From SAR86 cluster bacterium (GTDB lineage: Bacteria; Pseudomonadota; Gammaproteobacteria; Pseudomonadales; Pseudohongiellaceae): DNA of 43,877 nt. The translations under genes and the position numbers were made by a program. The stretch lies in assembly GCA_002746215.1 (NCBI GenBank), contig NVWI01000001.1:183197-227073 (forward strand). Direction: 5' to 3'. This document shows positions 3,685-42,610 of this stretch, piece after piece (within the stretch, counting starts at the first letter, position 1; each line of letters opens with the position of its first letter). Under the pieces are notes generated by a model. It was given only the letters and a program-made list of their open reading frames with translations. It was not told where the DNA came from and did not search any database.

Positions 3685-5910
3685 ATGTACGAATTTTTTT
3701 TCAAATATTCCCCCGCTGTTTACAATGAAAGTGAATTCATCCTGGCCAATACTTGGCCGCTTTGGCTGTTATATGCACTAGCGGTTACTTTCCTTGCTGC
3801 TTGCCTTTTTATGCTGGTCTGGAAACGCAAAGTTCTTAACGTCTATCAGCTTGTCAGTATCGGAGGGCTCCAGGCTCTAATGATAGGGCTGGTACTTTTT
3901 GTTCTATGGCAGCCAGCACTGGTAACTGAACGCTTAGTTGGTGGCGAAAATGCAGTCGCTATTTTATTAGACAGCTCAGCCAGCATGGCCTTGATTGACG
4001 ATGGCGAAACACGCATGGCGCAAGCGCAGGCCTTACTTTCAGAAGAAGGCCTTGCACAACTCGCCGATATTTATAACATCCTGCCTTATGCTTTCGCTGA
4101 AGAGCTAATCGAACTGGATAATTTCTCTGCACTGCCAAACCCTGGTGATACCTCCGATATCGGACGGTCGATTGTTCAAGCATTGCGTGAAGCCAGTAAC
4201 ACCTCATTAGGTGCTTTAATCCTGATCAGTGATGGTGCCGACAATAGCGGCAATATAGATGCGGCAACCTTAAGTGAAATAATTTCTTATGGCGTTCCGA
4301 TTCATACGGTTGGAATAGGCCGTGAAACCATTCTGGAAGACCTGGAACTAGCAAATATACAGTTACCGCAGTCTGCCTTGCCGGGCACAACGCTAACTGC
4401 TGGTGTCAGCATAATTCATGACCAGGGCGGCCTTACTCGCGTAAAAGTCTACAATGGTGATGAGCTAATAAGCACCGAAGAAATCCTGCTAAGTGTTGAT
4501 CAAAATATGACGACGGCCTTCATTGATATCGAGGTTAATGAGCCTGGTGAGCTGGATTTACGCTTCACGCTTGACCCTATTAATGGTGAAAAAAATCTGG
4601 CGAATAACTCCAGAGCGCAAGTGGTTGATGTGCCTGATGGTAATTACCGCATCCTTTATATAGAAGGTGAACCGCGCTGGGAATATAAATTTATGCAGCG
4701 CGCCATGGATGAAGACCCCAGCGTACAACTCTCCACTTTATTACGGGTTACCCCAAACAAGTTTTATCGACAAGGTATCGATGACCCGGCGCAACTTGAA
4801 GAGGGCTTTCCATCAGAGCGAGCTGAATTGTTTGCTTATGACGCATTGATTATTGGCAGTGTAGAGCTGGCTGAATTTAGCGAAGAGCAGCAGCAAATGA
4901 TTCATGATTTTGTCAGTGAGCGCGGCGGCAGCTTAATGATGTTGGCTGGGTTAAACGGTCTCGGCTTAGGCGGTTGGAGTGAGTCAGTAGTTAGCGAAGT
5001 TTTGCCAGCAAGACTACCTTCAGATGATGCCGCGTTTGTACGCCAACAAGCCAAGGTTATTCCAACCCCAAGCGGTCTTGCTTCTCCTATCCTGCAACTT
5101 AGTGGCAGCCCGTCAGAGAATCTTGAGCGGTGGAATGATTTACCGAATATTGCTGATTATCAGAATATTGGCCCTCTACGGCCTGCCGCCAGTACTTTAT
5201 TAGAAATTGATGTTGATGGTGAATTACAGCCTCTATTAATAACCCAGCCTTATGGCAGAGGGCAGAGCTATATCATGGCGACTGGCGGCACCTGGCGCTG
5301 GCAAATGAGTATGCCGCTTGAAGATATGAGCCATGAAACATTCTGGCGTCAATTGGCCCGTGGCCTGGTCGCTAATTCACCCCTGCCATTTGAGTTAAGC
5401 ACGACAGTAGAAAATGAAGAAATTCGAGTGCGCGCTCAAGTGCGTGACCCGGATGCAGAAGAAAATCAGGGCCTTGCCGTTTCTGCCGTCGTCTCTTCTC
5501 AATATGGCCCGGCAATGACCTTAGAGTTATTACCTTCCAGTAGTCAGCCAGGCGTCTATGAGGCCAGTTTCAAACCGGCGGATACTGGTTTGTTTTCAGT
5601 AGAAGCCATTTCTCGTATAGGCGACACCCCCATCAGCTCTACCCGCTCTGCCATTCGTTACGAGCAGAACCAAGAAGCTTTTTCTATCCGCCAGAATCGT
5701 GACCTGCTTGAAAACCTGGCTACAGCAACTGGTGGCCAGTACTGGCAAGCCCAGGAATGGGATGAGCTACCCGAGGCTATTTCATATTCCACTGCCGGCA
5801 TTACCGAACAAGATATCCGTTACCTCTGGGATGCCCCGATTATTTTTATTCTGCTGCTCTTATTAAAAACTGCAGAATGGTTATTAAGAAGGCGCTGGAG
5901 AACGATTTGA
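3685..5910 (+). CDS. VWA-domain membrane protein with glutamine-amidotransferase-like domain
   Basis: 741 residues. Two N-terminal membrane helices (about 25-46 and 56-76) precede a von Willebrand A domain with a complete MIDAS start, D96-S-S98-A-S100, and LILISDGADNSG later in the domain. A CARDB/Ig-like region (about 225-320) leads to a class-I glutamine-amidotransferase-like fold (about 325-560; RILYIEGEPRWEYKF, FVSERGGSLMMLAG). A further beta-rich segment and a C-terminal helix (about 716-733) with an RRR tail complete it. The same layout is common in MoxR/BatA-type clusters. The bulk is predicted periplasmic, anchored at both ends. It opens the operon and overlaps the next gene by one base (TGATG). 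MIDAS proteins bind partners through a divalent metal; the partner here is unknown. Confidence 0.85.
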   Translation: MYEFFFKYSPAVYNESEFILANTWPLWLLYALAVTFLAACLFMLVWKRKVLNVYQLVSIGGLQALMIGLVLFVLWQPALVTERLVGGENAVAILLDSSASMALIDDGETRMAQAQALLSEEGLAQLADIYNILPYAFAEELIELDNFSALPNPGDTSDIGRSIVQALREASNTSLGALILISDGADNSGNIDAATLSEIISYGVPIHTVGIGRETILEDLELANIQLPQSALPGTTLTAGVSIIHDQGGLTRVKVYNGDELISTEEILLSVDQNMTTAFIDIEVNEPGELDLRFTLDPINGEKNLANNSRAQVVDVPDGNYRILYIEGEPRWEYKFMQRAMDEDPSVQLSTLLRVTPNKFYRQGIDDPAQLEEGFPSERAELFAYDALIIGSVELAEFSEEQQQMIHDFVSERGGSLMMLAGLNGLGLGGWSESVVSEVLPARLPSDDAAFVRQQAKVIPTPSGLASPILQLSGSPSENLERWNDLPNIADYQNIGPLRPAASTLLEIDVDGELQPLLITQPYGRGQSYIMATGGTWRWQMSMPLEDMSHETFWRQLARGLVANSPLPFELSTTVENEEIRVRAQVRDPDAEENQGLAVSAVVSSQYGPAMTLELLPSSSQPGVYEASFKPADTGLFSVEAISRIGDTPISSTRSAIRYEQNQEAFSIRQNRDLLENLATATGGQYWQAQEWDELPEAISYSTAGITEQDIRYLWDAPIIFILLLLLKTAEWLLRRRWRTI

Positions 5911-6827
5911 TGGGAGAAAACAGAATTTCCAGAGCAACATTAATAAGCTGCATACTTTTTCTGTCAGGGTTTTCCCTGTCTGCACACGCCGAACTTTATG
6001 TCACCATTGTCCAGGGTCTTGCTGGTGAGCCAGCTTTTGGGGAAAACTTTCATTCCCAAAGCCAAACCATCGCTGACGCTTCAGCATCTTTAACCGACGC
6101 CGAAAAAATCACTTTTTTCAACGGAGAAAATGCTACTCGAGAAAATCTGTTGTCGCATTTTTCTGAACTCAGCAACACGATGAATGAGGATGATCGAGCT
6201 GCTGTTTATCTAATTGGTCATGGCAGTTTTGATGGTGAAGAGTATAAATTTAATATTCCCGGACTCGATCTCACAACTGATGACCTGCTCAATATCATGG
6301 ACTCCTTTCCTGGTCAAAATCATTTTCTTTTGAACACCTCCAGCACCAGCGGAGCATTACTAGAACCCTTAGAAAATGACAATCGAATCCTGATCACTGC
6401 AACCCGCAACGGCAATGAAAAGAATGCAACTTTCTTCGGAGAATACTTTGTTGAAGCATTGAGCAGCGAAGATGCCGACTTAAACAAAAACAATAATATA
6501 AGCATTGAAGAAGCCTTTGCTTATGCCCAACGCCAGGTAGAAGAATATTTTGAAAGTCAGGGCCAGCTTGCAACTGAACATTCTGAAATTGCAGGTAACG
6601 GTGCCGCTCAATTTACTTTAGCGCGACTTAGCCCGCTGGTGATTTCAAATGAGAACCCTCGCGTTGCTGAACTGCAAGAGCAAGTTTTAAACATTGATCG
6701 TCAGATTGAAAGTTTGCAATTGCGTCGTACTGAATTAAGCAATGCAGACTATATCGAACAACTACAAGCATTGATCTTACAGTCAGCCCGAATCAATGAA
6801 GAAATCGACCAGTTAACCAGTGAATAG
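5910..6827 (+). CDS. Exported caspase/legumain-like protein, catalytic Cys apparently replaced
   Basis: 305 residues from the ATG at 5910, which overlaps the previous stop and has a GGAG site 9 bases upstream. That start gives a clean signal peptide (hydrophobic 9-24, cleavage after AHA at 27), whereas the upstream in-frame ATG at 5877 would lie inside the previous gene. Residues about 30-245 look like a caspase-hemoglobinase fold. There is a strand VYLIGHGS with the expected catalytic His104, then a strand HFLLNTSSTSGA where C-x-S-G is expected, but here it reads S145-T-S-G. The C-terminus (250-305) is a predicted coiled coil rich in Glu, Gln and Leu. It is likely a periplasmic non-catalytic scaffold or a Ser variant (inference). 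Fold assignment is by motif only and moderately sure. Confidence 0.72.
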   Translation: MGENRISRATLISCILFLSGFSLSAHAELYVTIVQGLAGEPAFGENFHSQSQTIADASASLTDAEKITFFNGENATRENLLSHFSELSNTMNEDDRAAVYLIGHGSFDGEEYKFNIPGLDLTTDDLLNIMDSFPGQNHFLLNTSSTSGALLEPLENDNRILITATRNGNEKNATFFGEYFVEALSSEDADLNKNNNISIEEAFAYAQRQVEEYFESQGQLATEHSEIAGNGAAQFTLARLSPLVISNENPRVAELQEQVLNIDRQIESLQLRRTELSNADYIEQLQALILQSARINEEIDQLTSE

Positions 6828-6856
6828 TTGATCGATAAAAAGGTAAACCTAACGCC

Positions 6857-9172
6857 GTGAAAGCAACTCTTTATAAATCTATAAACCGCCTGGCTCCGCT
6901 AGTGGCTTGTAGTGCTATTTTGTTTGCTGCACACACACAAGCCAAAGAGCATTTATTAGGCGCATTGGATAATGAAACTTTATTAAATTGCGACAACCTT
7001 TATTGGTCAGGCCAAAGCCTTGACGCTAATGCCTGTTATCTAAGTATCGTCCGCACGGTTCATCCTCCAGAAATTCAAGCGGAGGCAATGTGGGCCTTAG
7101 GCGATCTGTATACAGCTGATGAGCTGTTAGAACAAGCGGCCCAATTGAGCCCTGATAATGCCATGATCCTGGTTAGAACCGGTGAGCTTTATAATCGCAC
7201 CTACCAATATCAAACTGCTTACAACTTTTTTAATCAGGCATTAACGCTTGAGCCTGATAATGCCTGGGCGCATGTTGGTGCGGCAGAAGCGCTTAGCTCT
7301 GGTAATAATGGTGAGGAAATTACTGCTCATCTACAAGCCGTAGAAATGTATTTTGCTTCCCCGCCAGGTGCTAGATTACGCGCCATGATCATGTCGATTA
7401 CTTCTGTCATGGAACGAGATTTATATGACCAGGCCCGAGAGAGTCTTGATCAAGCATGGGAACTTGTCGAAGACGAAGACCTCCCGCACATGCAACTTAA
7501 TGCGCTTGAAGCGGCTCTGGCTTTTGTCACCAGAAGAACCTACCAAGTACAAACCTATATAGATGAAGCGCTGAACGAAGCACCTGTTTATGGAGATGCT
7601 TACGCCATCCCGGCATACTTTGCCTCTATCACGCGTAGGTATGCTGAAGCCGGTGAATTTTATCAAAAAGCAGTTGAAGTCGAACCCCATCATTGGGCGG
7701 CCCATCTGGAGCTTGGTCAAAATTACCTTCGGTTAAATCAAATTACTGAAGGTATTCGTCATGTCGAAACTTCTTACGAAGGTGACGGTTTTAATCCGAA
7801 AACACTCAACATGATGCGCCTGCTGGATACCTTTACCGAAAACTTTGTTGACCTAACTTTTCCAAATCCGCCAGCAGGTGATGGTATTCCTAAACTGGTG
7901 CTACGACTGGATCGTAATGAAGTGGATGTGCTAAGCCCTTATGCCCAGGAGTTAGCTGAATCCAGCATGGCAATTTTTGAAGAACGTTATAACTTCCCGG
8001 CAAAAGAACCTGTCATCGTCGAAATATTTCCTAACCATGAAGACTTTGTCGTGCGCTCTATTGGCATGCCCGGTGTCGGCATTCTTGGCGTAACCTTTGG
8101 TTATCTGTTTGCCATGGACTCACCTACCGGCCACCCGAATGAAACCTATCACTGGGGTACAACCCTGTGGCACGAAATGGCTCACGTTTATACGGTTGAA
8201 GCCACAGAACATGGTGTGCCGCGTTGGTACAGTGAAGGCATTTCAGTCTATGAGGAATGGAATACCGGCCCAATTCCTGGCATTAAAATACCGGCATACG
8301 TATTACAATTTATGGCCGAGGACGCTTTTCTACCCGTTGCTGAATTAGATAACGGATTTATGCGGCCAACATATGACGAGCAAGTCATTGTTTCCTATAT
8401 GCAGGCAGGCTTAATCTTCCAGTTTATCTCTGACGAATACGGCCACGACAAAATAGTCGACATGCTTTATCTCTTTGTTGAAGGTACTGATGAAGTCACG
8501 GCTATTGAAACGACTTTGAATATCAGTGATAGAGAGTTTGACCGCCACTTTAAACAATATATTGATATTCAATTCGGCCCCTTGCTCAATAACTTACAAA
8601 TCTGGCAGCAAGATTTACAAGCGACCGCACAGGCATATGGCGCTGGCTCTTGGGAAGAAACCATTACCGCTGCCAATCGGGCAATTTTTACTTACCCAGA
8701 ATACGTTGAACAGGACAGCCCTTACATTGCTAAAGCACTGGCTCATGCTCAGCTTGAACAAGATGAACTGAAATTTGAAACCCTTGAAACTTTCTGGCAC
8801 CTTGGTGGTTATTCAGCCCGCGCCTTGAAGGAGCTTGCCGATGAATATATTGCCCGCGGACAACAGACAGAGGCAATTGCTGTATTTAGAGACGTCCATT
8901 ATGCCGACCCTTTTGATGAAGAGACGCATGGCAAACTTGGTGACTTGTATATTGAACTGGATCAGCCAGAAGCAGCTTTGCAGGAATATATGGTCGGGCT
9001 AGCGCTAAACCCTTTAGATCAGGCCGCTGCTAATTATCGTGTTGCCTCAGCTTATAAAGCTTTAAATGATCCCGCTCAATCAATGGACTATTTAATGACC
9101 GCGCTGGATATTGCCCCGCAATATCGGCCAGCACAACAACTATTATTGGAATTGAGCAGGGCAGGAAACTGA
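6857..9172 (+). CDS. Exported TPR protein with gluzincin (peptidase MA-like) domain
   Basis: 771 residues starting at GTG, with an AAAGG site about 13 bases upstream. A signal peptide (cleavage near residue 29, HTQA) is followed by tetratricopeptide repeats (about 75-310). A metallopeptidase domain follows (about 345-560), with H439-E440-M-A-H443 and a downstream WYSEG whose Glu460 is the likely third zinc ligand. More TPRs (about 670-765) close the protein. The His/Glu arrangement is the gluzincin (DUF1570/peptidase MA) pattern and all ligands are present. TPRs on both sides suggest it works in a complex, probably with the VWA proteins of the operon. It is predicted to be periplasmic. The similar but smaller protein at 41081-42610 shares WYSEG. 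Confidence 0.85.
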   Translation: MKATLYKSINRLAPLVACSAILFAAHTQAKEHLLGALDNETLLNCDNLYWSGQSLDANACYLSIVRTVHPPEIQAEAMWALGDLYTADELLEQAAQLSPDNAMILVRTGELYNRTYQYQTAYNFFNQALTLEPDNAWAHVGAAEALSSGNNGEEITAHLQAVEMYFASPPGARLRAMIMSITSVMERDLYDQARESLDQAWELVEDEDLPHMQLNALEAALAFVTRRTYQVQTYIDEALNEAPVYGDAYAIPAYFASITRRYAEAGEFYQKAVEVEPHHWAAHLELGQNYLRLNQITEGIRHVETSYEGDGFNPKTLNMMRLLDTFTENFVDLTFPNPPAGDGIPKLVLRLDRNEVDVLSPYAQELAESSMAIFEERYNFPAKEPVIVEIFPNHEDFVVRSIGMPGVGILGVTFGYLFAMDSPTGHPNETYHWGTTLWHEMAHVYTVEATEHGVPRWYSEGISVYEEWNTGPIPGIKIPAYVLQFMAEDAFLPVAELDNGFMRPTYDEQVIVSYMQAGLIFQFISDEYGHDKIVDMLYLFVEGTDEVTAIETTLNISDREFDRHFKQYIDIQFGPLLNNLQIWQQDLQATAQAYGAGSWEETITAANRAIFTYPEYVEQDSPYIAKALAHAQLEQDELKFETLETFWHLGGYSARALKELADEYIARGQQTEAIAVFRDVHYADPFDEETHGKLGDLYIELDQPEAALQEYMVGLALNPLDQAAANYRVASAYKALNDPAQSMDYLMTALDIAPQYRPAQQLLLELSRAGN

Positions 9173-9220
9173 ACTAATAAATAGCCGAAATAGAAGAGAA
9201 AGTTAAATCAACCAGGAATT

Positions 9221-10249
9221 ATGCATATGAGTGAAGCAGTAGAAGATTTTGGATCGGATGAAACTCGTGAATTAGTCGCCAACTTTCAAAAGGCAACTGC
9301 GGATATCCGAGAACAAATTGGCGGCACGATTGTCGGCCAGGATGAGGTTGTTGATAGCCTGCTGATTGCTCTCTTCGTTGGCGGACACTGTTTGATCACG
9401 GGTATGCCGGGCACTGCGAAGACCTTGTTAGTCCATACTCTGGCAAGCGCCCTGGGCTTAAATTTTAAGCGCATACAATTTACCCCTGACCTGATGCCAA
9501 CTGATATCACCGGCACAGACATGGTGGAAGAAGATCAAAGCACCGGCAAACGTGAATGGCGTTTTATTGAAGGCCCGATTTTCACTAACGTACTGCTGGC
9601 TGATGAGATTAACCGAACACCACCAAAAACTCAGGCAGCCTTACTGGAAGCGATGCAGGAAAAAACGGTCACCGTGCGCGGTAAAAACCATATTCTCGAC
9701 AAGCCTTTTATTGTGCTGGCAACCCAGAACCCAATCGAACTTGAAGGCACTTATCCATTGCCTGAAGCTCAGCTTGACCGTTTCCTGTTCAATGTCATTC
9801 TTGATTATCTGGATTCAGAGCAGGAAATCGCCGTTATTAATCGCTTCACCAAAAGCGTCGAGATGCCTCCGGTAAAAGCCTGCACCACGGCAGAAGAAAT
9901 CATCAAGTTTCAAAGCCTGGTAAGAGAAGTGCCTATCTCTGATTCTCTGAGCCGCTATGCTGTCGATATTGTGCGTGCCACCCGGCCTTCTGATGCACTA
10001 GCCACCGACATGATTAAAAAGTATGCCAATTTTGGTGCCAGTATTCGCGCCACCATGAACCTGGTATTAGCCGCTAAAACACGTGCATTAATGCAAGGCC
10101 GCTATCATGTGCAGGCTGACGATTTAAAAGCGCTAGCCATCCCAATTATGCGCCATCGTGTGTTGCCAAATTATTATGCCGAATCGGATGGCATCACTAT
10201 TGATGACATCCTGGCTGATTTACTGACGCATATTCCTGTGAACGAATAA
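9221..10249 (+). CDS. MoxR-family AAA+ ATPase
   Basis: 342 residues of a canonical MoxR ATPase. Walker A is GMPGTAKT (61-68), Walker B is LLADE followed by INR (125-132), sensor 1 is ATQNP (167-171) and the arginine-finger region is AQLDRFLF. The C-terminal lid domain runs to about 335. Two in-frame ATGs (9221 and 9227) are possible; the AGGA site at 9214 fits the second slightly better. MoxR ATPases act as chaperones that insert cofactors into, or remodel, VWA-domain proteins. Here it lies directly ahead of DUF58 and BatA-like genes and after two other envelope genes, consistent with powering that assembly from the cytoplasm. Confidence 0.96.
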   Translation: MHMSEAVEDFGSDETRELVANFQKATADIREQIGGTIVGQDEVVDSLLIALFVGGHCLITGMPGTAKTLLVHTLASALGLNFKRIQFTPDLMPTDITGTDMVEEDQSTGKREWRFIEGPIFTNVLLADEINRTPPKTQAALLEAMQEKTVTVRGKNHILDKPFIVLATQNPIELEGTYPLPEAQLDRFLFNVILDYLDSEQEIAVINRFTKSVEMPPVKACTTAEEIIKFQSLVREVPISDSLSRYAVDIVRATRPSDALATDMIKKYANFGASIRATMNLVLAAKTRALMQGRYHVQADDLKALAIPIMRHRVLPNYYAESDGITIDDILADLLTHIPVNE

Positions 10250-10274
10250 GTCATAACTAAATTAACAATTAATC

Positions 10275-11189
10275 ATGCAAATAGGTCAAACCGACAATAA
10301 GAATGCACCAACCCGCCTGCTGGACCCCAGCGTGCTGTCCAGCCTTGCCAATCTGGAGCTGGTTGCCAAGGCCGTGGTTGAAGGTTTTGTTATGGGCCTG
10401 CATCGCTCGCCTAAATATGGCTTCAGTCAGGAGTTTGTTGAGTACCGCGCATATGTCGACGGTGACGATCCGCGCCATATAGATTGGAACGTTTACTCTC
10501 GAACTAACAAAACATTTATCAAGTTGTTCAAAGGCGAAACCAACAGTCACTTAATGCTGTTACTTGATACCTCCGCCTCAATGGGCTTTGGTGCTAGCCA
10601 TTCAAAATTGCAATACGGCAAGTATCTGACCGCGAGTTTGGCCTATCTGGCTTCACGTCAGCACGATGCCATTGGTGCCATGATTTTTAATGACGAAGTG
10701 GTGCAATATCGCCCCCCCACTTCAAAGAGCGGCACCCTGCACGGTATTATTCACATGCTGGATAATGCTGAGGCCACCCAAGGCACCGCCATGCACAAAC
10801 CTTTCACCCGCTTTCGAGAGCATGTGAAAAAGCGCGGACTGGTTGCCATAATTTCTGATTTTTATTGTGATCCTGAAACCCTTATGGAAAACGTGCGTCC
10901 TCTGGCTCTACATGGTCAGGACGTCATCATGTTTCATTTAATGGACCCTGATGAGCTTAATCCGAACATTAAAGAATCAACCCTATATGAAGACATGGAG
11001 TCAGGGGATTCGATTGAGGTAGACCCGGTTTTTATGCAGCAAGATTATCCACAAAGAATAAAAGCGCATATTGCTGCCATTGAAAAAACGGCACAAGGCA
11101 TGAATGCTGATCACATACTGTTGAACACCAATGAGCCGCTTGATCGCGCCTTACACTCTTATCTGACCTTTCGGGAGAAGCGCGCCTGA
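10275..11189 (+). CDS. DUF58 domain protein
   Basis: 304 residues, the usual partner of MoxR. The DUF58 signature EYRAYVDGDDPRHIDWNVYS (about 56-75) is intact. A degenerate VWA-like strand LLLDTSASM (D98, S100, S102) follows, and a strand LVAIISDFY sits further on. No membrane helix is seen, so it is probably cytoplasmic or peripheral. It starts 25 bases after moxR and overlaps the next gene by one base (TGATG), which implies coupled translation. DUF58 proteins are thought to bridge MoxR and membrane VWA proteins; the biochemical role is not established. Confidence 0.94.
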   Translation: MQIGQTDNKNAPTRLLDPSVLSSLANLELVAKAVVEGFVMGLHRSPKYGFSQEFVEYRAYVDGDDPRHIDWNVYSRTNKTFIKLFKGETNSHLMLLLDTSASMGFGASHSKLQYGKYLTASLAYLASRQHDAIGAMIFNDEVVQYRPPTSKSGTLHGIIHMLDNAEATQGTAMHKPFTRFREHVKKRGLVAIISDFYCDPETLMENVRPLALHGQDVIMFHLMDPDELNPNIKESTLYEDMESGDSIEVDPVFMQQDYPQRIKAHIAAIEKTAQGMNADHILLNTNEPLDRALHSYLTFREKRA

Positions 11190-13219
11190 TGTCTCTGCTT
11201 AGCCCACTATTTTTGTTTGCCTTACTCGGTATCGCATTGCCTATATGGCTGCATCGTTTACAAACAAACGCCACCGAAAGAGAAAAGTTTAGCTCCATTA
11301 TGTTCATGGAGCAGAGCCAGCAACGCGTGCATATCCAGCGACAATTGAAATACCTTTTGTTAATGGCCTTGCGAATTCTGTTTCTGGTTTTGTTAGTTCT
11401 CGCTTTTACCAAGCCGGTGTTTTTTGTCGCACCTGATGCTGCGGTAACTGAAGACACAACGCATCATGTCATTGTTCTTGATACCTCTTTTTCTATGCGT
11501 GAAGGTGGCAGTTTTGATCAGGCAATTGCCTTAGCTGAGGGCTTGATCGACAATATGGGCACAGATGATATTGCCAGTCTTTATACGGCGAGTGGCTCCG
11601 TTGAAACCATTACCGCAGCGACTGCCGATACAGCCGTTATCAGAGGCAGCCTGAATGACCTCAGCCCTGATAATGGACGTTTGGATATTGGCGCCATGGT
11701 GACGGCTTTAGACAGCTTAATTGCCAGTAGCCAGGCAAATTTTATTATTCATTTTATCAGTGATTACCAGCAAAGCGGCCAGGCTGTACGTTTTGCTGAC
11801 ATGATCCCGGATGTTATTAATGGGCGTCCGGTGACACTTAATATTCATCAGGTTAAAACGCAAAACATAGCGAACTGGTCAGTTGCTTCTGTGGAAATTA
11901 CAGCCGTCGATACTGTGCGTATTGGTCTAAAAAATAACAGTGATGCCGATCAAAGCGCTGAAAAAACAGTCACCTTAAGCATCAACGACCTTACTCAACA
12001 AAACCTTACCGAAACCTTTGCCGCTCCAGCAGACGGGATATCTTATCTCACGTTTGAAAATGTCTTGTTTGAAGAGGGCGATAATCGCCTGGATGTTAAT
12101 GTTTCACCAAACGATAGTTTTCCTGAGGATGATATTCGCCACACAGTCTTTGATAACTCGCCCCCGGCACCGGTTATTCTTTTAAGCGCTGACCCAGAAT
12201 CTTTGGCCGTTACTTATATTACAACCGCTCTGGAAACTGCGCCTCGCGGTTACGAAGTAGAGCTGCAAAATATTAATGATTTTGACCCCCGAATATTACA
12301 GCGCTATCCCTGGATAGTGATTGACGACATCGGCGCAGTTAACGAATCGCTTGCACAAGAATTGCAACGCTATGTTGATGGCGGTGGCGCAATACTGGCC
12401 GCCGTCGGTGAGCGCACACTGGGTCAAACCAGCATTCCAGTGGGAGGTCAAACTATTGATGGCGGCCTGACTTTTAATCGTAATACTGCGTACAGCATTC
12501 AGCGCGTAAATACAGCGCACCCTGTATTGGATGGCTCTGTCGGCTGGAATAACCTGGCCATCTCCCGAGTGCTACCAATCGAAACAGATGACACGAGTAA
12601 TGTTCTTATTAATTTAAATGACGACATTCCTTTTTTAATAGAACGTAACATTGGCCTCGGCCGCTTCCTCTTATTAAATACTGACTTGAATAACACCTGG
12701 AGCGACCTGCCTGTGAAACCTGTTTTTGTGAGTTTTATTGCTGAAGCTGCCAGACACTTATCTAATGAAGAATTATTAGTGAAAGAACAGACTATCAATA
12801 GCTTCCTGCAACTGGGCCAAAATGGCGGCGCTTCTGGCCAAGTCTATGCTCCTTCTGGAGACAGCTTGCTGTCTTTAGCCGACACAACTCAAGCGCAGAG
12901 CATACAACTCACTGAAACCGGTTATTACAGAATCGTCACGTTAGGCCGCGATATATTAGTTGCCGTTAACCCCGATGCCCGTGAATCAGATTTAAATATT
13001 ATGGACGCCCAGACTCTGCAAAACTGGGAAACTATGGTGGCTGGCAGCGCGAGGAGTATGGAATTCGTGGATGGCATCGCCGTCAGCATCGCCGAAGAGG
13101 AGTCTGTCGCTGTAGAGATTTGGCGTGTATTATTGATTTTACTTGCTGTTATTGTCCTTACCGAGTCCTTATTAGGTAATCGCTATCTACGGTTCAATAC
13201 AGGAAATACCTCGTTATGA
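11189..13219 (+). CDS. BatA-like VWA membrane protein
   Basis: 676 residues. The N-terminus is the Bat (aerotolerance regulator) N-terminal domain: helix 4-20, IWLHRL, then helix 55-74 ending in FTKPVF. A VWA domain with D98-T-S100-F-S102 (MIDAS) follows, and a GATase-like region at about 325-530 (IDDIGAVNESLAQELQRYV, GGGAILAAVGER). A C-terminal helix (about 648-664) anchors the protein again. The topology mirrors the first operon gene, so the operon encodes two large periplasmic VWA/GATase-like proteins. It overlaps both neighbours by 1 and 4 bases. Confidence 0.88.
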   Translation: MSLLSPLFLFALLGIALPIWLHRLQTNATEREKFSSIMFMEQSQQRVHIQRQLKYLLLMALRILFLVLLVLAFTKPVFFVAPDAAVTEDTTHHVIVLDTSFSMREGGSFDQAIALAEGLIDNMGTDDIASLYTASGSVETITAATADTAVIRGSLNDLSPDNGRLDIGAMVTALDSLIASSQANFIIHFISDYQQSGQAVRFADMIPDVINGRPVTLNIHQVKTQNIANWSVASVEITAVDTVRIGLKNNSDADQSAEKTVTLSINDLTQQNLTETFAAPADGISYLTFENVLFEEGDNRLDVNVSPNDSFPEDDIRHTVFDNSPPAPVILLSADPESLAVTYITTALETAPRGYEVELQNINDFDPRILQRYPWIVIDDIGAVNESLAQELQRYVDGGGAILAAVGERTLGQTSIPVGGQTIDGGLTFNRNTAYSIQRVNTAHPVLDGSVGWNNLAISRVLPIETDDTSNVLINLNDDIPFLIERNIGLGRFLLLNTDLNNTWSDLPVKPVFVSFIAEAARHLSNEELLVKEQTINSFLQLGQNGGASGQVYAPSGDSLLSLADTTQAQSIQLTETGYYRIVTLGRDILVAVNPDARESDLNIMDAQTLQNWETMVAGSARSMEFVDGIAVSIAEEESVAVEIWRVLLILLAVIVLTESLLGNRYLRFNTGNTSL

Positions 13220-16200
13220 AAGCAACCGAAAAGCTTGAACTCTACCTGGCTGAATTTCGCCAGCGTCTAAAAAAATTAGTTATTCTGCAAGGTGTGGCAG
13301 CAGTTGCTGCTGTTATCCTAATAATCTCCCTGATTGCAGCCTGGCTTTCACTTGAAAATGGTTACGCTGACTCCACAGTCATCACTTTTCGTCTCTTACT
13401 GATTCTGGCGCTAGCTGTAGTCACTCTAAAAGGCATTGTTGAGCCCTTAAAAAGAATTAAAGACAATGTCAGCTCACAAATTGAAAGTCGCAGTGCAAAA
13501 ACTGGCGGTAAAGGCTTTCAAGGTCGTGTCGAAACCTATGCTCAAATGGAGCAAGGCAATCCCTTCCGTGAGCTGCTGGCTGAAGATGCATTAAAAATCA
13601 GCGAGTCTTATCCTGCGGCTGAACAAGTTAAGAACAAGGACATGCAAATAGCCGGACTGGCTGCGGCTGCAATGCTTGCTGTGCTAATTTATATGAGCGT
13701 CGGCGCAGGCTTGTTTTCCTACAGTCTGCAAAACTTTCTTGCGGGTTGGGCCAGTGACAGTTTTGTGCCGCCACAATCGATTGTTGTTTTACCCGGTGAT
13801 GAAAGTGTGCGACGTGGCTCTAATTTACGAATCAATGCGCAAGTAGAAGGCTTTGACCCTGATGAAGCAACCCTTCATGTACGTAGCGACGGCGAAGACT
13901 GGCAGGAAGTTCCTTTAATCAGAACCATGGATGGCTTTGAATTCACGCTGTTCTCATTACAAGAAGAGATGGACTACTACGTTTCAACGACGGGTTTGCG
14001 TAGCCCTGACTTTACCGTGCAGGTTGTTGATTTGCCCTCAATCGAAAATCTGGAATTAACCTATATTTTCCCAGAATGGACCGCGCGTGAATCAGAAACG
14101 TCTACCCGTGGTGACATTGAGGCATTAGCAGAAACCAAAATTATACTTAATGTGACGACTTCCGGCCCTTTACCTGCTGGAGAATTAATCCTCAATAATA
14201 CCTCTCAAGCACTCAGCATAAACGGTAATGAAGCGTCTACTGAATTTATGATTTTAGAGGAAGGACAATATTACATCGCAGCTTTGGTTGGCGGCGAGCA
14301 AGTGCGTTTAAGTGATGATTACTTCATTAGCATAGCTGAAGACGGCTCTCCACAAATTGAACTCATGCGTCCTGGTCAGGACTGGAATGCTACCAATATT
14401 GAAGAAGTGTTGGCTCGAGTTGATGCCTCTGATGATTACGCCCTGGAAAGCCTGCTAATTAAATATTCCATTAATGGCGGAGACTGGCAGGAAGTGGATT
14501 TGTATGAAGCCGCTGACGAGCTTTCAATTGAACATATCTTCATGCTGGAAGACATGCGTACCGTACAAACACGCACGGCAGCAGCGCCTAAAATTGAGTT
14601 GGGTGCTTTTGATATTGTGCTGGGAGATGCATTGTTGCCCGTAGGAGTAGAAGAAGGTGAGGAAGGTGAAGAAGAAATTGCCAGCCTTGATCCCTCGGCT
14701 CAGGATAATGAACCTACTTTTGACGAAATTCCACTCAAACCAGGCGATCTAATTTCCTACTATGCCGAAGCTTCTGACCGCTCACGGACAGTACAAACGG
14801 ATATCTATTTCATTCAGATTCAAGCCTATAACCGACGTTATTCGCAATCGCAGCTCTCTGGAGGCGGTGGCGGTGGTGGCGGCAGCCCTACTGATGAAAT
14901 TTCTCAACGCCAACGTCAGATCGTGGTATCAACCTGGAACCTGATTCGCGAAGCCGGTGAAGGTAATAATGGGCAGGTTGAAATTAATTCGTCATTACTG
15001 TCTGAACTACAGCTAACTCTGGCCCAACAAGCACAAACACTTACTGATCGCGCACGGGCTCGTCAGCTTAATCAGCAGGATGAAGACGTCGAGCGCTTTG
15101 TAGAGAGCATGGATTTAGCTATTCAGGCTATGTTCCCCAGTTCTGAGCATCTAGCCTCTTTAGAACTGCAAGAAGCGATTCAACCTGCCCAGGAAGCCCT
15201 GCAACATTTATTGCAAGCTGAAGCTGTATTTAACGATATGCAAGTAGGCCAGCAGCAAGGCGGGAGCGGTGGAGGCGGTGGTAGTCGTGCCAGCCAGGAT
15301 CTTGCCGAAATGTTTGAGCTGGAAATGGATATGGAGCAAAACCAGTACGAAACGGGTGAAAGTGCTTCGCCACAAGCGCAGCAGGAGCAATTGGAAGACA
15401 TCATGGCTCAGCTAGATGAGCTTGCACAACGCCAGGAACAACTTGCTAATAACATGCGTAATCAGCAACAGTTGACCGAAGCACAACAATATCAGCAGGA
15501 AATGCTCAGACGCGACGCCGAACAATTACAAGAACAGTTAGAGCAATTACAACAACAGCAACTGGGGCAACAAGGCCAGCAACAGGCCAATAACCAACAG
15601 CAAGGGCAACCTGGACAACAGGGTCAGCAAACCGGTCAAGAAGGGCAGCAGGGTCAAGAGCAAGAAGGCCAACAAACTGCTCAAAATGAGCTACAGCGAC
15701 GCCTTGAAAGTGCTATACGTGCAATGAATGAGACCGAAGAAGCTATGGCAAATAACCTTGGCTCTGAAGAATTGCAACGCGCGGCAGAAGAAGCACAGCG
15801 CCAACTTGAAGGAGCGCGTGATCAATTAGCTCAAGACCAGATAGCCAGTATGCGGGAATCTTTTGCCAGTATGGCCGATCAATCTGCCGACATGCTGCTT
15901 GCCCAAGAACGTATGCAACAACAATTACAAGAAGCGATGGAGCTCGCTCTGTCTGAACGTGAAAGTGGTGATAACCCTAACAGCCGAGGCATGACATTAC
16001 TGGAAGAAATGGAACTGGCTGATAAGAAGGAAGAACTGGCTGCCGACCTCCAACGCTTACAACAACAAATGATGAACACCATGCAACAATTTGGTGACGA
16101 AACGCCTGCTGCCGCTAGACAGCTTGCTGAAGGTAATGAAACTATTGCTGAACGTGAATTGGAACTGGCTTTGTCTGATGCCGCACTTTATATCGATGCT

Positions 16201-16896
16201 GGTTATGCCCTGTATATTGCCGGTAATGAACGCAATGTCACGGAAGGCATGCGTGCACTGAATGAAAGCTTGGAACGTGCAGAGCAATTGGCCCTGGGCG
16301 CACTTGATGGTGATAGCGACCTTGAACAGGCGCTTGAACAAGCAGGGGAATTACGTGATCAACTGGCGCAGCTTTCTCAGCAGAACGGCCAACAACCCGG
16401 TCAAGGCGGACAGCAACAAGGGCAAGAGGGCGAGGGCCAGCAAGGACAAGGGCAGCAACAAGGTGGTTTGGGTGGCAGACCTGACGGGATCGTGAATGGT
16501 CAGGGCCCTACCGCTTGGTCAGGCAATGGTGCTAACACTGCCTTTGACGGCCCAATTGAGATGCCTGGAGATTTTTACGACGGCCTCGACAATCTTACCG
16601 AACTAACCCGTGATGCTATTCCTGAAATGCAAATGACCCAGGAACAAATAAATGAGCTACTCGATGTTATACGCGAACTGGAATTCAGTCGGGTCAATCG
16701 TAATGATGATATCGTGCTTGAAGAATACAACAATATGCTGGCGTTAATTGAACAGCTGGAACTTTCGTTACGCTTCGAAGGCCGCAATACCAATAATTCC
16801 AACAATGTCCGTACTGCTGTTCTGGATATGATTCCTGAAGAGTATCAGGAATCAGTGGCCGAATATTATCGTCGCTTATCGCGCGAGAATAACTAG
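13216..16896 (+). CDS. Giant Gln-rich DUF4175-like membrane protein
   Basis: 1226 residues. Two N-terminal membrane helices (about 20-43 and 50-70) and a third (about 145-167) are followed by periplasmic beta domains (about 180-540). A poly-Gly linker (about 551-559) leads into a long, largely helical, coiled-coil region (560-1220). It contains a Gln/Gly-rich low-complexity tract (about 770-835, repeats of GQQGQ type) and a second one near 1055-1090. The last 100 residues are helical and acidic. This is the layout of DUF4175 proteins (TIGR02302-type, well known in alphaproteobacteria), here longer than the roughly 850 residues I recall. It overlaps the BatA-like gene by 4 bases and ends the operon. 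Role unknown; it may act as a long spacer or scaffold across the periplasm (inference). Confidence 0.8.
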   Translation: MKATEKLELYLAEFRQRLKKLVILQGVAAVAAVILIISLIAAWLSLENGYADSTVITFRLLLILALAVVTLKGIVEPLKRIKDNVSSQIESRSAKTGGKGFQGRVETYAQMEQGNPFRELLAEDALKISESYPAAEQVKNKDMQIAGLAAAAMLAVLIYMSVGAGLFSYSLQNFLAGWASDSFVPPQSIVVLPGDESVRRGSNLRINAQVEGFDPDEATLHVRSDGEDWQEVPLIRTMDGFEFTLFSLQEEMDYYVSTTGLRSPDFTVQVVDLPSIENLELTYIFPEWTARESETSTRGDIEALAETKIILNVTTSGPLPAGELILNNTSQALSINGNEASTEFMILEEGQYYIAALVGGEQVRLSDDYFISIAEDGSPQIELMRPGQDWNATNIEEVLARVDASDDYALESLLIKYSINGGDWQEVDLYEAADELSIEHIFMLEDMRTVQTRTAAAPKIELGAFDIVLGDALLPVGVEEGEEGEEEIASLDPSAQDNEPTFDEIPLKPGDLISYYAEASDRSRTVQTDIYFIQIQAYNRRYSQSQLSGGGGGGGGSPTDEISQRQRQIVVSTWNLIREAGEGNNGQVEINSSLLSELQLTLAQQAQTLTDRARARQLNQQDEDVERFVESMDLAIQAMFPSSEHLASLELQEAIQPAQEALQHLLQAEAVFNDMQVGQQQGGSGGGGGSRASQDLAEMFELEMDMEQNQYETGESASPQAQQEQLEDIMAQLDELAQRQEQLANNMRNQQQLTEAQQYQQEMLRRDAEQLQEQLEQLQQQQLGQQGQQQANNQQQGQPGQQGQQTGQEGQQGQEQEGQQTAQNELQRRLESAIRAMNETEEAMANNLGSEELQRAAEEAQRQLEGARDQLAQDQIASMRESFASMADQSADMLLAQERMQQQLQEAMELALSERESGDNPNSRGMTLLEEMELADKKEELAADLQRLQQQMMNTMQQFGDETPAAARQLAEGNETIAERELELALSDAALYIDAGYALYIAGNERNVTEGMRALNESLERAEQLALGALDGDSDLEQALEQAGELRDQLAQLSQQNGQQPGQGGQQQGQEGEGQQGQGQQQGGLGGRPDGIVNGQGPTAWSGNGANTAFDGPIEMPGDFYDGLDNLTELTRDAIPEMQMTQEQINELLDVIRELEFSRVNRNDDIVLEEYNNMLALIEQLELSLRFEGRNTNNSNNVRTAVLDMIPEEYQESVAEYYRRLSRENN

Positions 16897-41080: not shown

Positions 41081-42610
41081 TTAATCATTGGTTAAAGCAT
41101 AAATTGGATCAAGGATAGATATATCTATCTGTCCAGAATCAATTTGCCCTATTAAGCCTTCAACAATTTGTCTTTGCCACTCAGACTGAAAAGAGGCAAG
41201 TGAGAGCGAAGCATAACGACGAGCTAAATCCGCTCTATCTTCATTAATTAATAACTTAGCAATATCTAGATTAAGAGTTGGCGAAGATGGAAATAAACTA
41301 TGTTGCTCTAACATGGTTTCTAAAGCAGAAATAACTTTATCTTGCTTTAAATATGATTGCCCCAAGAAATAAAGGGCGCTAAGATTTTCAGGGTCATTTT
41401 CAAGAGCTCGTTTTGTATAGTCTTCTACTTTGATTAAAGTATCTATATTCTGATTGCCATTTTCTTCAGCTTTCAGATAATTATCCATTTCAACATGTGC
41501 TAGATTTGTAAGTACAAAACTATCTTCTGTATTTTCTGCTAACGCAAAGTCAATATCCTGTTCAGCAAGTTCATCATAATCCAAGTGATTATGAATAATT
41601 GAGCGTAGGGAATATGCTCGATTAGCATTTTCACCTTGCTCATCAATACTCTGCAAATATTCTAAGGCTGCTTCGTCTTCACCAAAGTTAAGTACAAGAT
41701 GTGCTAATACATAGTTAATGGTATTTGGTAAAAGCAGTTCTTGTTGAATACCTCCTGTATATTCAGGAGCAGGAGACCAAGTCACACGAGTCCCAGCATT
41801 CGATGATTGGTAACCACGCAATCTAGAGGACATCTCATCTGGAGTAATCCCATAGCTTTCCATGAATGCTTGCTCAGGATCTATTCCTCGATTAAAAGCA
41901 TTAAGATAAGCCGCTGTTTGTTGTTTTAGTTCTGGATTCTCTTCGTAAGAATTTATTTGTAGATAATGAACAAATAACCAAGCAGTTGCATAAAACCTTC
42001 CTTCATAAAACCCACTTTGCCGATCTTCAGGTACAACTTGGTCTAAACTAATTAACCGCTCTATACCAACCTGTTGTGAAAAGCGTAAAAAGTCAGCTCT
42101 ATTTTGATTGATATCCCCTATTCTTACACGGTTACGCCTAATGTTCGCAGTTGAAAATACTTCAGCGAGCCCTTCGCTATACCATTTGGGATATATGATG
42201 TTGGAGTGTTCAGATAATAAATAATGAATATACTCATGAAATAAAATTAATTTCGCATTTGACAATCGTCCAGTAGGACCAATAACCATTCGCGGGCCAG
42301 CATCAGTATTTATATAATAGCCTGCAGCTCCTCTAGGAAGGTTTGCCTTATTATATTCTCGAGAACTATCGTACTTAATAATAACCATTTTTTGATTTTC
42401 AGATTCATTAGGGAGTCCTAGCAAGGTAAGAGATACAACCCGGTAAACTTCAAAATCCTCAAGCAAAGAGATAATTTCTCTAGGTTGGTCATCAGAATAA
42501 ATAACGAAGTTATCTGAAGTATAGCTCGACCATTCAAGCCCGAAGCTTAAAGGCGCTACTAACGTGAATACAAATGGTAATACCAATTTTTGGATGGTTT
42601 TTATTAACAT
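41081..42610 (-). CDS. Exported HExxH/TPR peptidase-like protein
   Basis: 509 residues with a signal peptide (hydrophobic 9-23), AAGGA 8 bases before the ATG. The N-terminal domain resembles the peptidase MA/DUF1570 gluzincin fold: WSSYTSDNFVIYSDD at the start, H125-E126-Y-I-H129, then WYSEGLAE with Glu146 as the likely third zinc ligand. The C-terminal half (about 290-500) is TPR-like (AYSLRSIIHNHLDYDELAEQ, ALYFLGQSYLKQ). All catalytic ligands are present. It shares WYSEG and the protease-plus-TPR idea with the operon protein at 6857 but is arranged the other way round. Predicted periplasmic; substrate unknown. Not obviously operonic with RidA (36-base gap). Confidence 0.85.
   Translation of the reverse strand: MLIKTIQKLVLPFVFTLVAPLSFGLEWSSYTSDNFVIYSDDQPREIISLLEDFEVYRVVSLTLLGLPNESENQKMVIIKYDSSREYNKANLPRGAAGYYINTDAGPRMVIGPTGRLSNAKLILFHEYIHYLLSEHSNIIYPKWYSEGLAEVFSTANIRRNRVRIGDINQNRADFLRFSQQVGIERLISLDQVVPEDRQSGFYEGRFYATAWLFVHYLQINSYEENPELKQQTAAYLNAFNRGIDPEQAFMESYGITPDEMSSRLRGYQSSNAGTRVTWSPAPEYTGGIQQELLLPNTINYVLAHLVLNFGEDEAALEYLQSIDEQGENANRAYSLRSIIHNHLDYDELAEQDIDFALAENTEDSFVLTNLAHVEMDNYLKAEENGNQNIDTLIKVEDYTKRALENDPENLSALYFLGQSYLKQDKVISALETMLEQHSLFPSSPTLNLDIAKLLINEDRADLARRYASLSLASFQSEWQRQIVEGLIGQIDSGQIDISILDPIYALTND

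What the first reader, a model, noticed from the sequence alone, without database searches (positions are those of the whole stretch)
5910..6827. Caspase/legumain-like protein with Ser in place of catalytic Cys
The GHGS strand with His104 and the following strand NTSSTSGA align in position with the His and C-x-S-G parts of caspase-hemoglobinase folds, but the expected Cys is Ser145. A C-terminal coiled coil follows. It may be a pseudoenzyme with a scaffold or inhibitor role, or a Ser-type variant.
Basis: partly seen in the sequence, partly recalled or inferred. Interest (0 to 1): 0.58.

Follow-up and report, generated by a model that had tools for sequence, protein, structure and literature searches.

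The report
Cysteine-less legumain-like protein in envelope operon
A bacterial protein with the predicted fold of a protein-cutting enzyme (legumain) has serine where the cutting cysteine should be; its relatives share this and sit in one operon with an ATP-driven membrane system, so it is probably a retired protease kept as a binding part.

Summary
The 305-aa protein at 5910-6827 has a confident legumain-like (clan CD, C13) predicted fold: pLDDT 90.1, legumain Z about 20. His104 is in place and Ser145 aligns with the catalytic Cys. This is not a point loss. Of 141 distinct family members examined, His104 is kept in 141; residue 145 is Ser in 134, Asn/Pro/Thr/Glu in 7, Cys in none. Of 27 readable distant relatives, 25 have Cys there.

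The family is tied to one operon: a VWA/GATase-like protein, this protein, usually a TPR-metallopeptidase, then MoxR, DUF58, BatA and a DUF4175-like gene. In the window's order it occurs in the same 10 of 194 genomes as the upstream VWA gene. None of 10 Cys-type relatives checked lies in such an operon.

Best reading: an exported pseudo-peptidase whose old cleft is a binding site within a MoxR-VWA membrane complex (probability about 0.6; mechanism inferred). The tree needs at least six changes away from Ser; five members carry Asn, Pro or Glu, which cannot be nucleophiles. That argues against a Ser protease, although those branches evolve fast. Partner and substrate are unknown. New variant of a known kind.

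The parts
5910..6827 (+). C13 (legumain-like) pseudo-peptidase, 305 aa; signal-peptide-like N-terminus about residues 1-27 (read by eye), C13 domain about 26-242, C-terminal helices 250-271 and 278-304
6219..6221 (+). codon of His104 (GHG)
   Evidence: position computed; His in 141 of 141 members
6342..6344 (+). codon of Ser145 at the catalytic-Cys position
   Evidence: position computed
3685..5910 (+). VWAG (my name): VWA protein with MIDAS residues kept and a GATase1-like domain; its stop codon overlaps the start codon of the C13 gene by one base
6857..9172 (+). TPRMA (my name): TPR protein with Peptidase_MA_2 match and HExxH motif, GTG start
9221..10249 (+). MoxR-type AAA+ ATPase (AAA_3)
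10275..11189 (+). DUF58/VWA protein
11189..13219 (+). BatA-type VWA protein with an N-terminal double-transmembrane domain match
13216..16896 (+). DUF4175-like large protein (Pfam match far below cut-off: 10.7 vs 27.3 bits)

Best explanation
It is an exported pseudo-peptidase of the legumain (C13) fold. Its ancestor lost the catalytic Cys (to Ser) before the Gammaproteobacterial and Acidobacterial copies of this operon diverged (inferred from the tree). It no longer cuts. It keeps the old cleft, with an invariant His and a family-specific set of residues, as a binding site for a protein or peptide. It works as a fixed subunit of an inner-membrane MoxR-VWA complex, in the periplasm, on the same side of the membrane as the VWA domains of its operon partners. 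There it would present clients to, or regulate, those VWA proteins and often the co-encoded TPR-metallopeptidase. Shown by computation: predicted fold, absence of Cys in all members examined, operon linkage and purifying selection. Inferred: location, lack of activity, binding role, and identity of partners.
For: Fold: AF2 pLDDT 90.1, pTM 0.85; Foldseek best match legumain 4n6o, E 4.0e-10; VIA Z 20.7 over 192 residues at 2.5 A rmsd for legumain 4nol, with metacaspase 4 tied at 20.5. No Cys: residue 145 is S 134, N 2, P 2, T 2, E 1, C 0 of 141; H104 141 of 141; the Gly of the x-S-G motif (148) is Phe or Tyr in 26 of 141. Tree: family set apart from 6 chosen Cys-type rows with SH-aLRT 100; at least 6 changes away from Ser inside the family, the same with column 145 left out. 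Operon: VWAG, C13 and TPRMA in 80 of 80 loci; VWAG, C13 and MoxR in 21 of 21 further regions. Co-occurrence: VWAG in the same 10 of 194 genomes of the order; all 69 Acidobacterial genomes with a C13 match of 131 bits or more also have VWAG, and 70 of 75 such places lie directly behind it. Control: 0 of 10 Cys-type C13 regions hold VWAG, MoxR, DUF58, BatA or DUF4175. Core gene: 98 of 99 genomes of the window's family. Active-looking parts elsewhere in the operon: HExxH in 94 of 94 readable TPRMA, MIDAS and Walker residues invariant or nearly so. Location: hydrophobic N-terminus in 76 of 80, small-x-small behind it in 70 (a crude rule); the VWA domain of the BatA-domain protein BB0173 of Borrelia faces the periplasm (abstract and passages of PMC5700661). 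Precedent: T. brucei MCA-4, Cys to Ser, inactive but functional (passage of PMC6657590).
Against: Ser145 is among the better conserved columns (rank 26 of 277) and His104 is invariant, which is more than a bare scaffold needs. The seven non-Ser members have long terminal branches (median 0.46 against 0.14, p 2e-4), so they may be decaying rather than proving that Ser is dispensable. No interaction, expression or activity data exist. TPRMA was not found in 5 of 21 regions, so it cannot be the only partner. In 17 of 87 Acidobacterial VWAG places no C13 match lies directly behind, so VWAG can occur without it.
Confidence: 0.6

Rival explanations
1. A Ser-type clan CD hydrolase: Ser145 with His104 is a working nucleophile-base pair in the legumain fold.
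For: Ser in 134 of 141 and His in 141 of 141 members; strong conservation of other residues such as N115, D120, T165, E170 and E223; the members without Ser lie on long, fast-evolving branches.
Against: Asn, Pro or Glu at 145 in 5 of 141 members, all next to VWAG; at least 6 changes away from Ser. A natural Cys-to-Ser clan CD homologue, TbMCA-4, is reported inactive (passage of PMC6657590). No clan CD peptidase with a Ser nucleophile is known to me (recalled).
Confidence: 0.1
2. A dedicated regulator or inhibitor of the co-encoded TPR-metallopeptidase (pseudo-protease paired with a protease).
For: Neighbouring genes in 80 of 80 loci; HExxH intact in 94 of 94 readable; partial distance correlation with TPRMA 0.21 (weak).
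Against: In 5 of 21 other regions the metallopeptidase was not found, yet the C13 gene stays with VWAG and MoxR. The partial correlation is higher with BatA, 0.32.
Confidence: 0.15
3. Active by another route: a hydrolase or transferase in which His104 and conserved acidic residues act without a side-chain nucleophile at 145.
For: H104, N115, G118, D120, T165, D190, E201 and E223 are kept in 141 of 141 members.
Against: No clan CD precedent known to me (recalled); the three-dimensional clustering of these residues could not be measured, as the tools give no model coordinates.
Confidence: 0.1
4. A recent point loss or decaying copy, or a dominant-negative inhibitor of a Cys-type paralogue in the same cell.
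For: Clan CD pseudo-variants are common in prokaryotes; Ser accounts for 43% of catalytic-Cys substitutions in prokaryotic metacaspases (passage of PMC3501461).
Against: Ser across the family, dN/dS 0.08-0.11, present in 98 of 99 family genomes, and only one match in the own genome, at E up to 1 with the protein and at E up to 1e-5 with the 81-row profile.
Confidence: 0.03

Closest known systems
Peptidase family C13 (legumain/asparaginyl endopeptidase, GPI8/PIGK)
   Same: Predicted fold over residues about 26-242, Pfam profile match, GHG His, Ser two residues after the nucleophile position (138 of 141)
   Different: No catalytic Cys; bacterial operon protein; C-terminal helices outside the matched range; no credible solved relative by sequence
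Pseudo-orthocaspases and T. brucei metacaspase 4 (clan CD pseudo-peptidases)
   Same: Natural Cys-to-Ser at the nucleophile (abstract and passages of PMC6426788; passage of PMC6657590)
   Different: The pseudo-orthocaspases of that abstract carry Tyr and Ser in place of His and Cys; here His is invariant, and Pfam C13 is matched by 38 of 81 members against 3 for C14
Bat/MoxR operons and the Rhizobium RL3499-RL3502 envelope operon
   Same: MoxR, DUF58 and BatA/VWA genes together, as described for Borrelia, Bacteroides, Rhizobium and Leptospira (passages of PMC5700661); RL3499-RL3502 mutation causes morphology and envelope defects (title seen in a reference list)
   Different: No C13-like gene is mentioned for these in the passages read; here it is a constant part
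MoxR-vWA ternary conflict systems (Kaur et al. 2020, PMC7159879)
   Same: MoxR plus VWA plus caspase-superfamily domains; about 70% of the effector-position caspase domains in the VMAP systems are called inactive (passages)
   Different: There the caspase domains are mostly fused to VWA or VMAP proteins; here it is a separate protein with a signal-peptide-like start, in a fixed operon present in 98 of 99 genomes of the family

Membership tests
Peptidase C13 / PF01650 | Profile match above the curated cut-off | tested here: met
   26.3 vs 22.8 bits; 38 of 81 members match at E up to 0.01, 43 do not
Peptidase C13 / PF01650 | Clan CD alpha/beta fold of the legumain type | tested here: met
   Predicted model; Foldseek and VIA matches to legumain. 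Metacaspase 4 is tied on Z, so the fold alone does not separate C13 from C14
Peptidase C13 / PF01650 | Catalytic His in GHG | tested here: met
   141 of 141
Peptidase C13 / PF01650 | Catalytic Cys | tested here: not met
   0 of 141; so not an active C13 cysteine peptidase, only a homologue
Peptidase C13 / PF01650 | Asparaginyl endopeptidase activity | not testable with these tools
   needs purified protein
Pseudo-orthocaspases (C14, Tyr-Ser dyad) | His replaced by Tyr and Cys by Ser in a C14 p20 domain | tested here: not met
   His kept in 141 of 141; C14 is matched by 3 of 81 members at E up to 0.01
Bat/MoxR operon | MoxR AAA+, DUF58 and BatA-type VWA genes adjacent on one strand | tested here: met
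Bat/MoxR operon | Role in envelope integrity or stress | not testable with these tools
   no phenotype data for these organisms
MoxR-vWA ternary conflict systems | Caspase domain fused to the VWA or VMAP component | tested here: not met
   separate 305-aa protein; stand-alone peptidase genes are mentioned there as occasional. The MoxR protein does match PF20030 bpMoxR above its cut-off (45.6 vs 27 bits), far below its AAA_3 match of 208.6
MoxR-vWA ternary conflict systems | VMAP, iSTAND or FtsH third component | not tested
   no specific search was made; none appears among the Pfam matches of the seven operon proteins

The most novel reading that the evidence does not exclude
The family is a Ser-dependent clan CD hydrolase, the first in a clan otherwise built on Cys. 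It would act in the periplasm under control of a MoxR-VWA machine, and the few non-Ser members would be lineages losing that activity.
Probability: 0.1. Interest if true: 0.85.

Novelty: new variant of a known kind. Interest (0 to 1): 0.52.

Why it matters
MoxR-VWA (Bat) operons occur in several phyla, and what they act on is largely unsettled. A constant, exported, Cys-less peptidase-fold subunit with an invariant His and a conserved residue set gives a handle for finding the client. It also adds a widely conserved example of a pseudo-peptidase that keeps its site without its nucleophile.

Tried and rejected
Sequence search of the PDB with the single protein gave only chance matches (best E 0.45). 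With the 81-row profile the only hit was an ACE2 chain at E 6e-4. I took this as chance, since the predicted fold is legumain-like.

Point mutation in one genome: rejected. Artefact frame: rejected (dN/dS). Promoters or terminators between the genes: the scan gave fewer sites than the shuffles (8 vs 21.5 and 12 vs 14.6), so it says nothing.

Mirror-tree partner finding on 73 loci: partial correlations BatA 0.32, TPRMA 0.21, VWAG 0.17, DUF58 0.09, MoxR 0.02, DUF4175 -0.16. Kept only as a weak hint, because slow genes may correlate less for technical reasons.

A Foldseek search of the VWAG model gave low TM scores (best in the list 0.36 by target, oligosaccharyltransferase subunits 6c26_B and 7oci_G). 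No fold claim rests on it.

Rows dropped before counts: 10 of the 85 C13 places (under 131 bits; six genomes had only such matches, one of them, G725, with a VWAG), duplicates were removed, leaving 175 sequences split at 150 bits; for the tree, 6 of the 34 distant sequences were chosen as outgroup.

Limits: 353 of the 433 relatives found were not returned, so a Cys member among them is not excluded. Phyla other than Pseudomonadota and Acidobacteria were not sampled, apart from one Gemmatimonadota record. The tree is a quick LG+G4 one, and the tool warned of long branches meeting. The C-terminal helices were not folded or searched alone.
Full report
WHAT IS THERE. The open frame 5910-6827 (+) encodes 305 aa. 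The protein starts with a signal-peptide-like stretch; by a crude rule 76 of 80 relatives have a hydrophobic N-terminus, and 70 have a small-x-small motif behind it. Pfam assigns Peptidase_C13 above its cut-off (26.3 vs 22.8 bits). NCBIfam gave no match at E up to 1.

FOLD. AlphaFold2 on an 81-row alignment gives pLDDT 90.1 and pTM 0.85. Foldseek's best PDB match is legumain 4n6o, E 4.0e-10. VIA-align gives Z 20.7 for legumain 4nol (192 residues, 2.5 A), 20.5 for metacaspase 4 and 17.6 for the GPI transamidase subunit; a fifth or more of its rows span residues 26-242. The C-terminal helices (250-271, 278-304) lie mostly outside these matches and were not searched alone. A profile-profile comparison with 13 Cys-bearing relatives gives probability 99.2, E 1.2e-19, and puts Ser145 opposite their Cys.

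IS THE SER FAMILY-WIDE? In everything examined, yes. Among the window plus 80 loci of the genome scan (80 of 433 relatives were returned), residue 145 is Ser in 80 of 81 (one Glu), and His104 is kept in 81 of 81. After adding genome-search loci and removing duplicates there are 141 members at 150 bits or more: Ser 134, Asn 2, Pro 2, Thr 2, Glu 1, Cys 0; His104 141 of 141. The other 34 sequences, all at about 50 bits or less, have Cys in 25 of the 27 that could be read there, Asn in one and Phe in one. No intermediate scores occurred among these 175; in the wider listings, low or middling scores such as 131 and 75 bits at G610:C33 were two pieces of one split match. The x-S-G part is less strict: Ser147 in 138, but Gly148 in 114, Phe or Tyr in 26 and Ala in 1 of 141. 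Serine codons at 145 are AGY in 126 and TCN in 8. AGY and Cys TGY differ by one base, which is compatible with a Cys ancestor but does not prove it.

HISTORY. A quick maximum-likelihood tree separates the 141 members from six chosen Cys-type rows (SH-aLRT 100) and needs at least six changes between Ser and something else inside the family; leaving column 145 out gives the same number. The five members with Asn, Pro or Glu stand in different places on the tree. The seven non-Ser rows have longer end branches (median 0.46 against 0.14; Mann-Whitney p 2e-4). They keep most other key residues: deviations at 21 key columns are 6, 0, 3, 1, 1, 3 and 3, against a mean of 1.7 and median of 0 for the Ser rows. 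I read this as tolerance of nucleophile loss. Relaxation or decay in those lineages is an honest alternative.

CONTEXT. The gene lies in a same-strand run 3685-16896 with gaps of -1, 29, 48, 25, -1 and -4 bases. The order is VWAG (VWA plus a GATase1-like match at 26.9 bits, cut-off 27), the C13 protein, TPR plus Peptidase_MA_2 (TPRMA), MoxR (AAA_3), DUF58, BatA, DUF4175-like (the last match is far below its cut-off). In 80 of 80 scanned loci, VWAG, the C13 gene and TPRMA are found on one strand. MoxR is found in 70, DUF58 in 65, BatA in 64 and DUF4175 in 59 of 80; some loci end early, and I did not sort each miss. Of 21 further regions (20 chosen from sister clades and Acidobacteria, plus one Gemmatimonadota plasmid), 21 have VWAG, C13 and MoxR, 20 DUF58, 20 BatA, 18 the DUF4175-like gene, and 16 TPRMA. 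In 10 regions around Cys-type relatives, none of VWAG, MoxR, DUF58, BatA or DUF4175 was found; one Cys-type ORF itself matched the TPR profile.

PHYLETIC PATTERN. In the window's order, the Ser-type gene and VWAG (E up to 1e-30) occur in the same 10 of 194 genomes; the other 6 of 16 hits of the C13 search were Cys-type. In the Acidobacterial sample of 247 genomes, 69 have the C13 gene at 131 bits or more and all 69 have VWAG. Four genomes have VWAG only. 70 of 75 C13 places lie directly behind a VWAG (within 400 bases; a sixth-rank case, G643, misses this by 83 bases), and 17 of 87 VWAG places have no C13 directly behind. In the window's family, 98 of 99 genomes have it. In a sample of 398 genomes of the phylum, the own genome scored 397.5 bits and the next best 52.0, so the family is rare in the phylum as a whole.

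PARTNERS LOOK ACTIVE, TWO DOMAINS DO NOT. HExxH is present in 94 of 94 readable TPRMA. The VWA MIDAS residues and the MoxR Walker motifs are invariant or nearly so. The GATase-like domain of VWAG has no Cys in the 14 columns 414-427 that I took for its nucleophile elbow (0 of 97-100 sequences); I identified that stretch by eye. So the operon appears to combine a motor, metal-binding VWA domains and a metallopeptidase with two enzyme-fold domains that lack their nucleophile.

HOW IT PROBABLY WORKS. The pseudo-C13 protein is predicted to be exported, to where the VWA domains of BatA-type proteins are. For the BatA-domain protein BB0173 of Borrelia this side was reported to be the periplasm (abstract and passages of PMC5700661). 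MoxR ATPases are described as having chaperone-like roles and co-operating with VWA proteins in target remodelling (abstract starts in the listings). A conserved site without a nucleophile, in a fixed subunit of such a system, is best explained as a client- or partner-binding site. I give this 0.6. Location, binding and partners are inferred. In Leptospira biflexa, bat mutants showed no growth, morphology or oxidative-stress defect (passages of PMC3557215), so a phenotype cannot be taken for granted.

KNOWN OR NEW. Clan CD pseudo-peptidases are known: Ser makes up 43% of catalytic-Cys substitutions in prokaryotic metacaspases (passage of PMC3501461), pseudo-orthocaspases carry Tyr and Ser (abstract of PMC6426788), and TbMCA-4 (Cys to Ser) is inactive (passage of PMC6657590). 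Bat/MoxR operons are known, and mutation of the Rhizobium RL3499-RL3502 operon damages the envelope (title only, in a reference list). I found no paper joining the two in these searches: MoxR with legumain (0 papers); C13 peptidase with MoxR or von Willebrand (10 of 44 papers listed, none of the 10 with a C13 term); DUF4175/DUF4159/MoxR/DUF58/aerotolerance (2 papers, neither with DUF4175 or DUF4159); MoxR with caspase and VWA (7 papers, of which I read passages of one, PMC7159879, and did not open the other six). The library lacks most subscription journals.

VERDICT. Real, conserved, and correctly spotted. It is a new variant of a known kind: a C13 pseudo-peptidase family fixed in a MoxR-VWA operon.

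Noticed in passing
3685-5910 (+): The VWAG protein carries a GATase1-like domain (26.9 bits against a cut-off of 27) without Cys in the presumed elbow, so it may be a second pseudoenzyme in the operon. Its best weak Foldseek match is an oligosaccharyltransferase subunit (6c26_B, TM 0.35 by target).
   Followed up: partly
L195, L197, L199, L200, L201: In these Acidobacterial regions the TPR-metallopeptidase gene was not found between the C13 gene and MoxR (L200 ends inside MoxR), while the rest of the operon that is covered stays.
   Followed up: partly
L209, L210, L211: In three genomes of sister genera of the window's family the DUF4175-like gene lies in front of VWAG instead of behind BatA.
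   Followed up: no
41081-42610 (-): A second TPR protein with an HEYIH metallopeptidase-like motif (read by eye) and a DUF1570 match lies elsewhere in the window, outside the operon.
   Followed up: no
L053, L061, L082, L089 (residue aligned with window 146): Four of 81 members have Cys one residue after Ser145 (S-C-S-G); the alignment without gaps makes it a neighbour of the old nucleophile site, not the site itself.
   Followed up: no
Acidobacterial genomes, e.g. G782:C16, G736:C2, G676:C19: Seventeen of 87 VWAG places have no C13 hit directly behind them, several in genomes with a second VWAG copy that does have one: possible paralogous operons without the C13 gene.
   Followed up: no
L034, L035: Two metagenome bins titled Klebsiella pneumoniae carry the operon at 45-46% identity to the window protein; the titles are probably wrong labels.
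   Followed up: no
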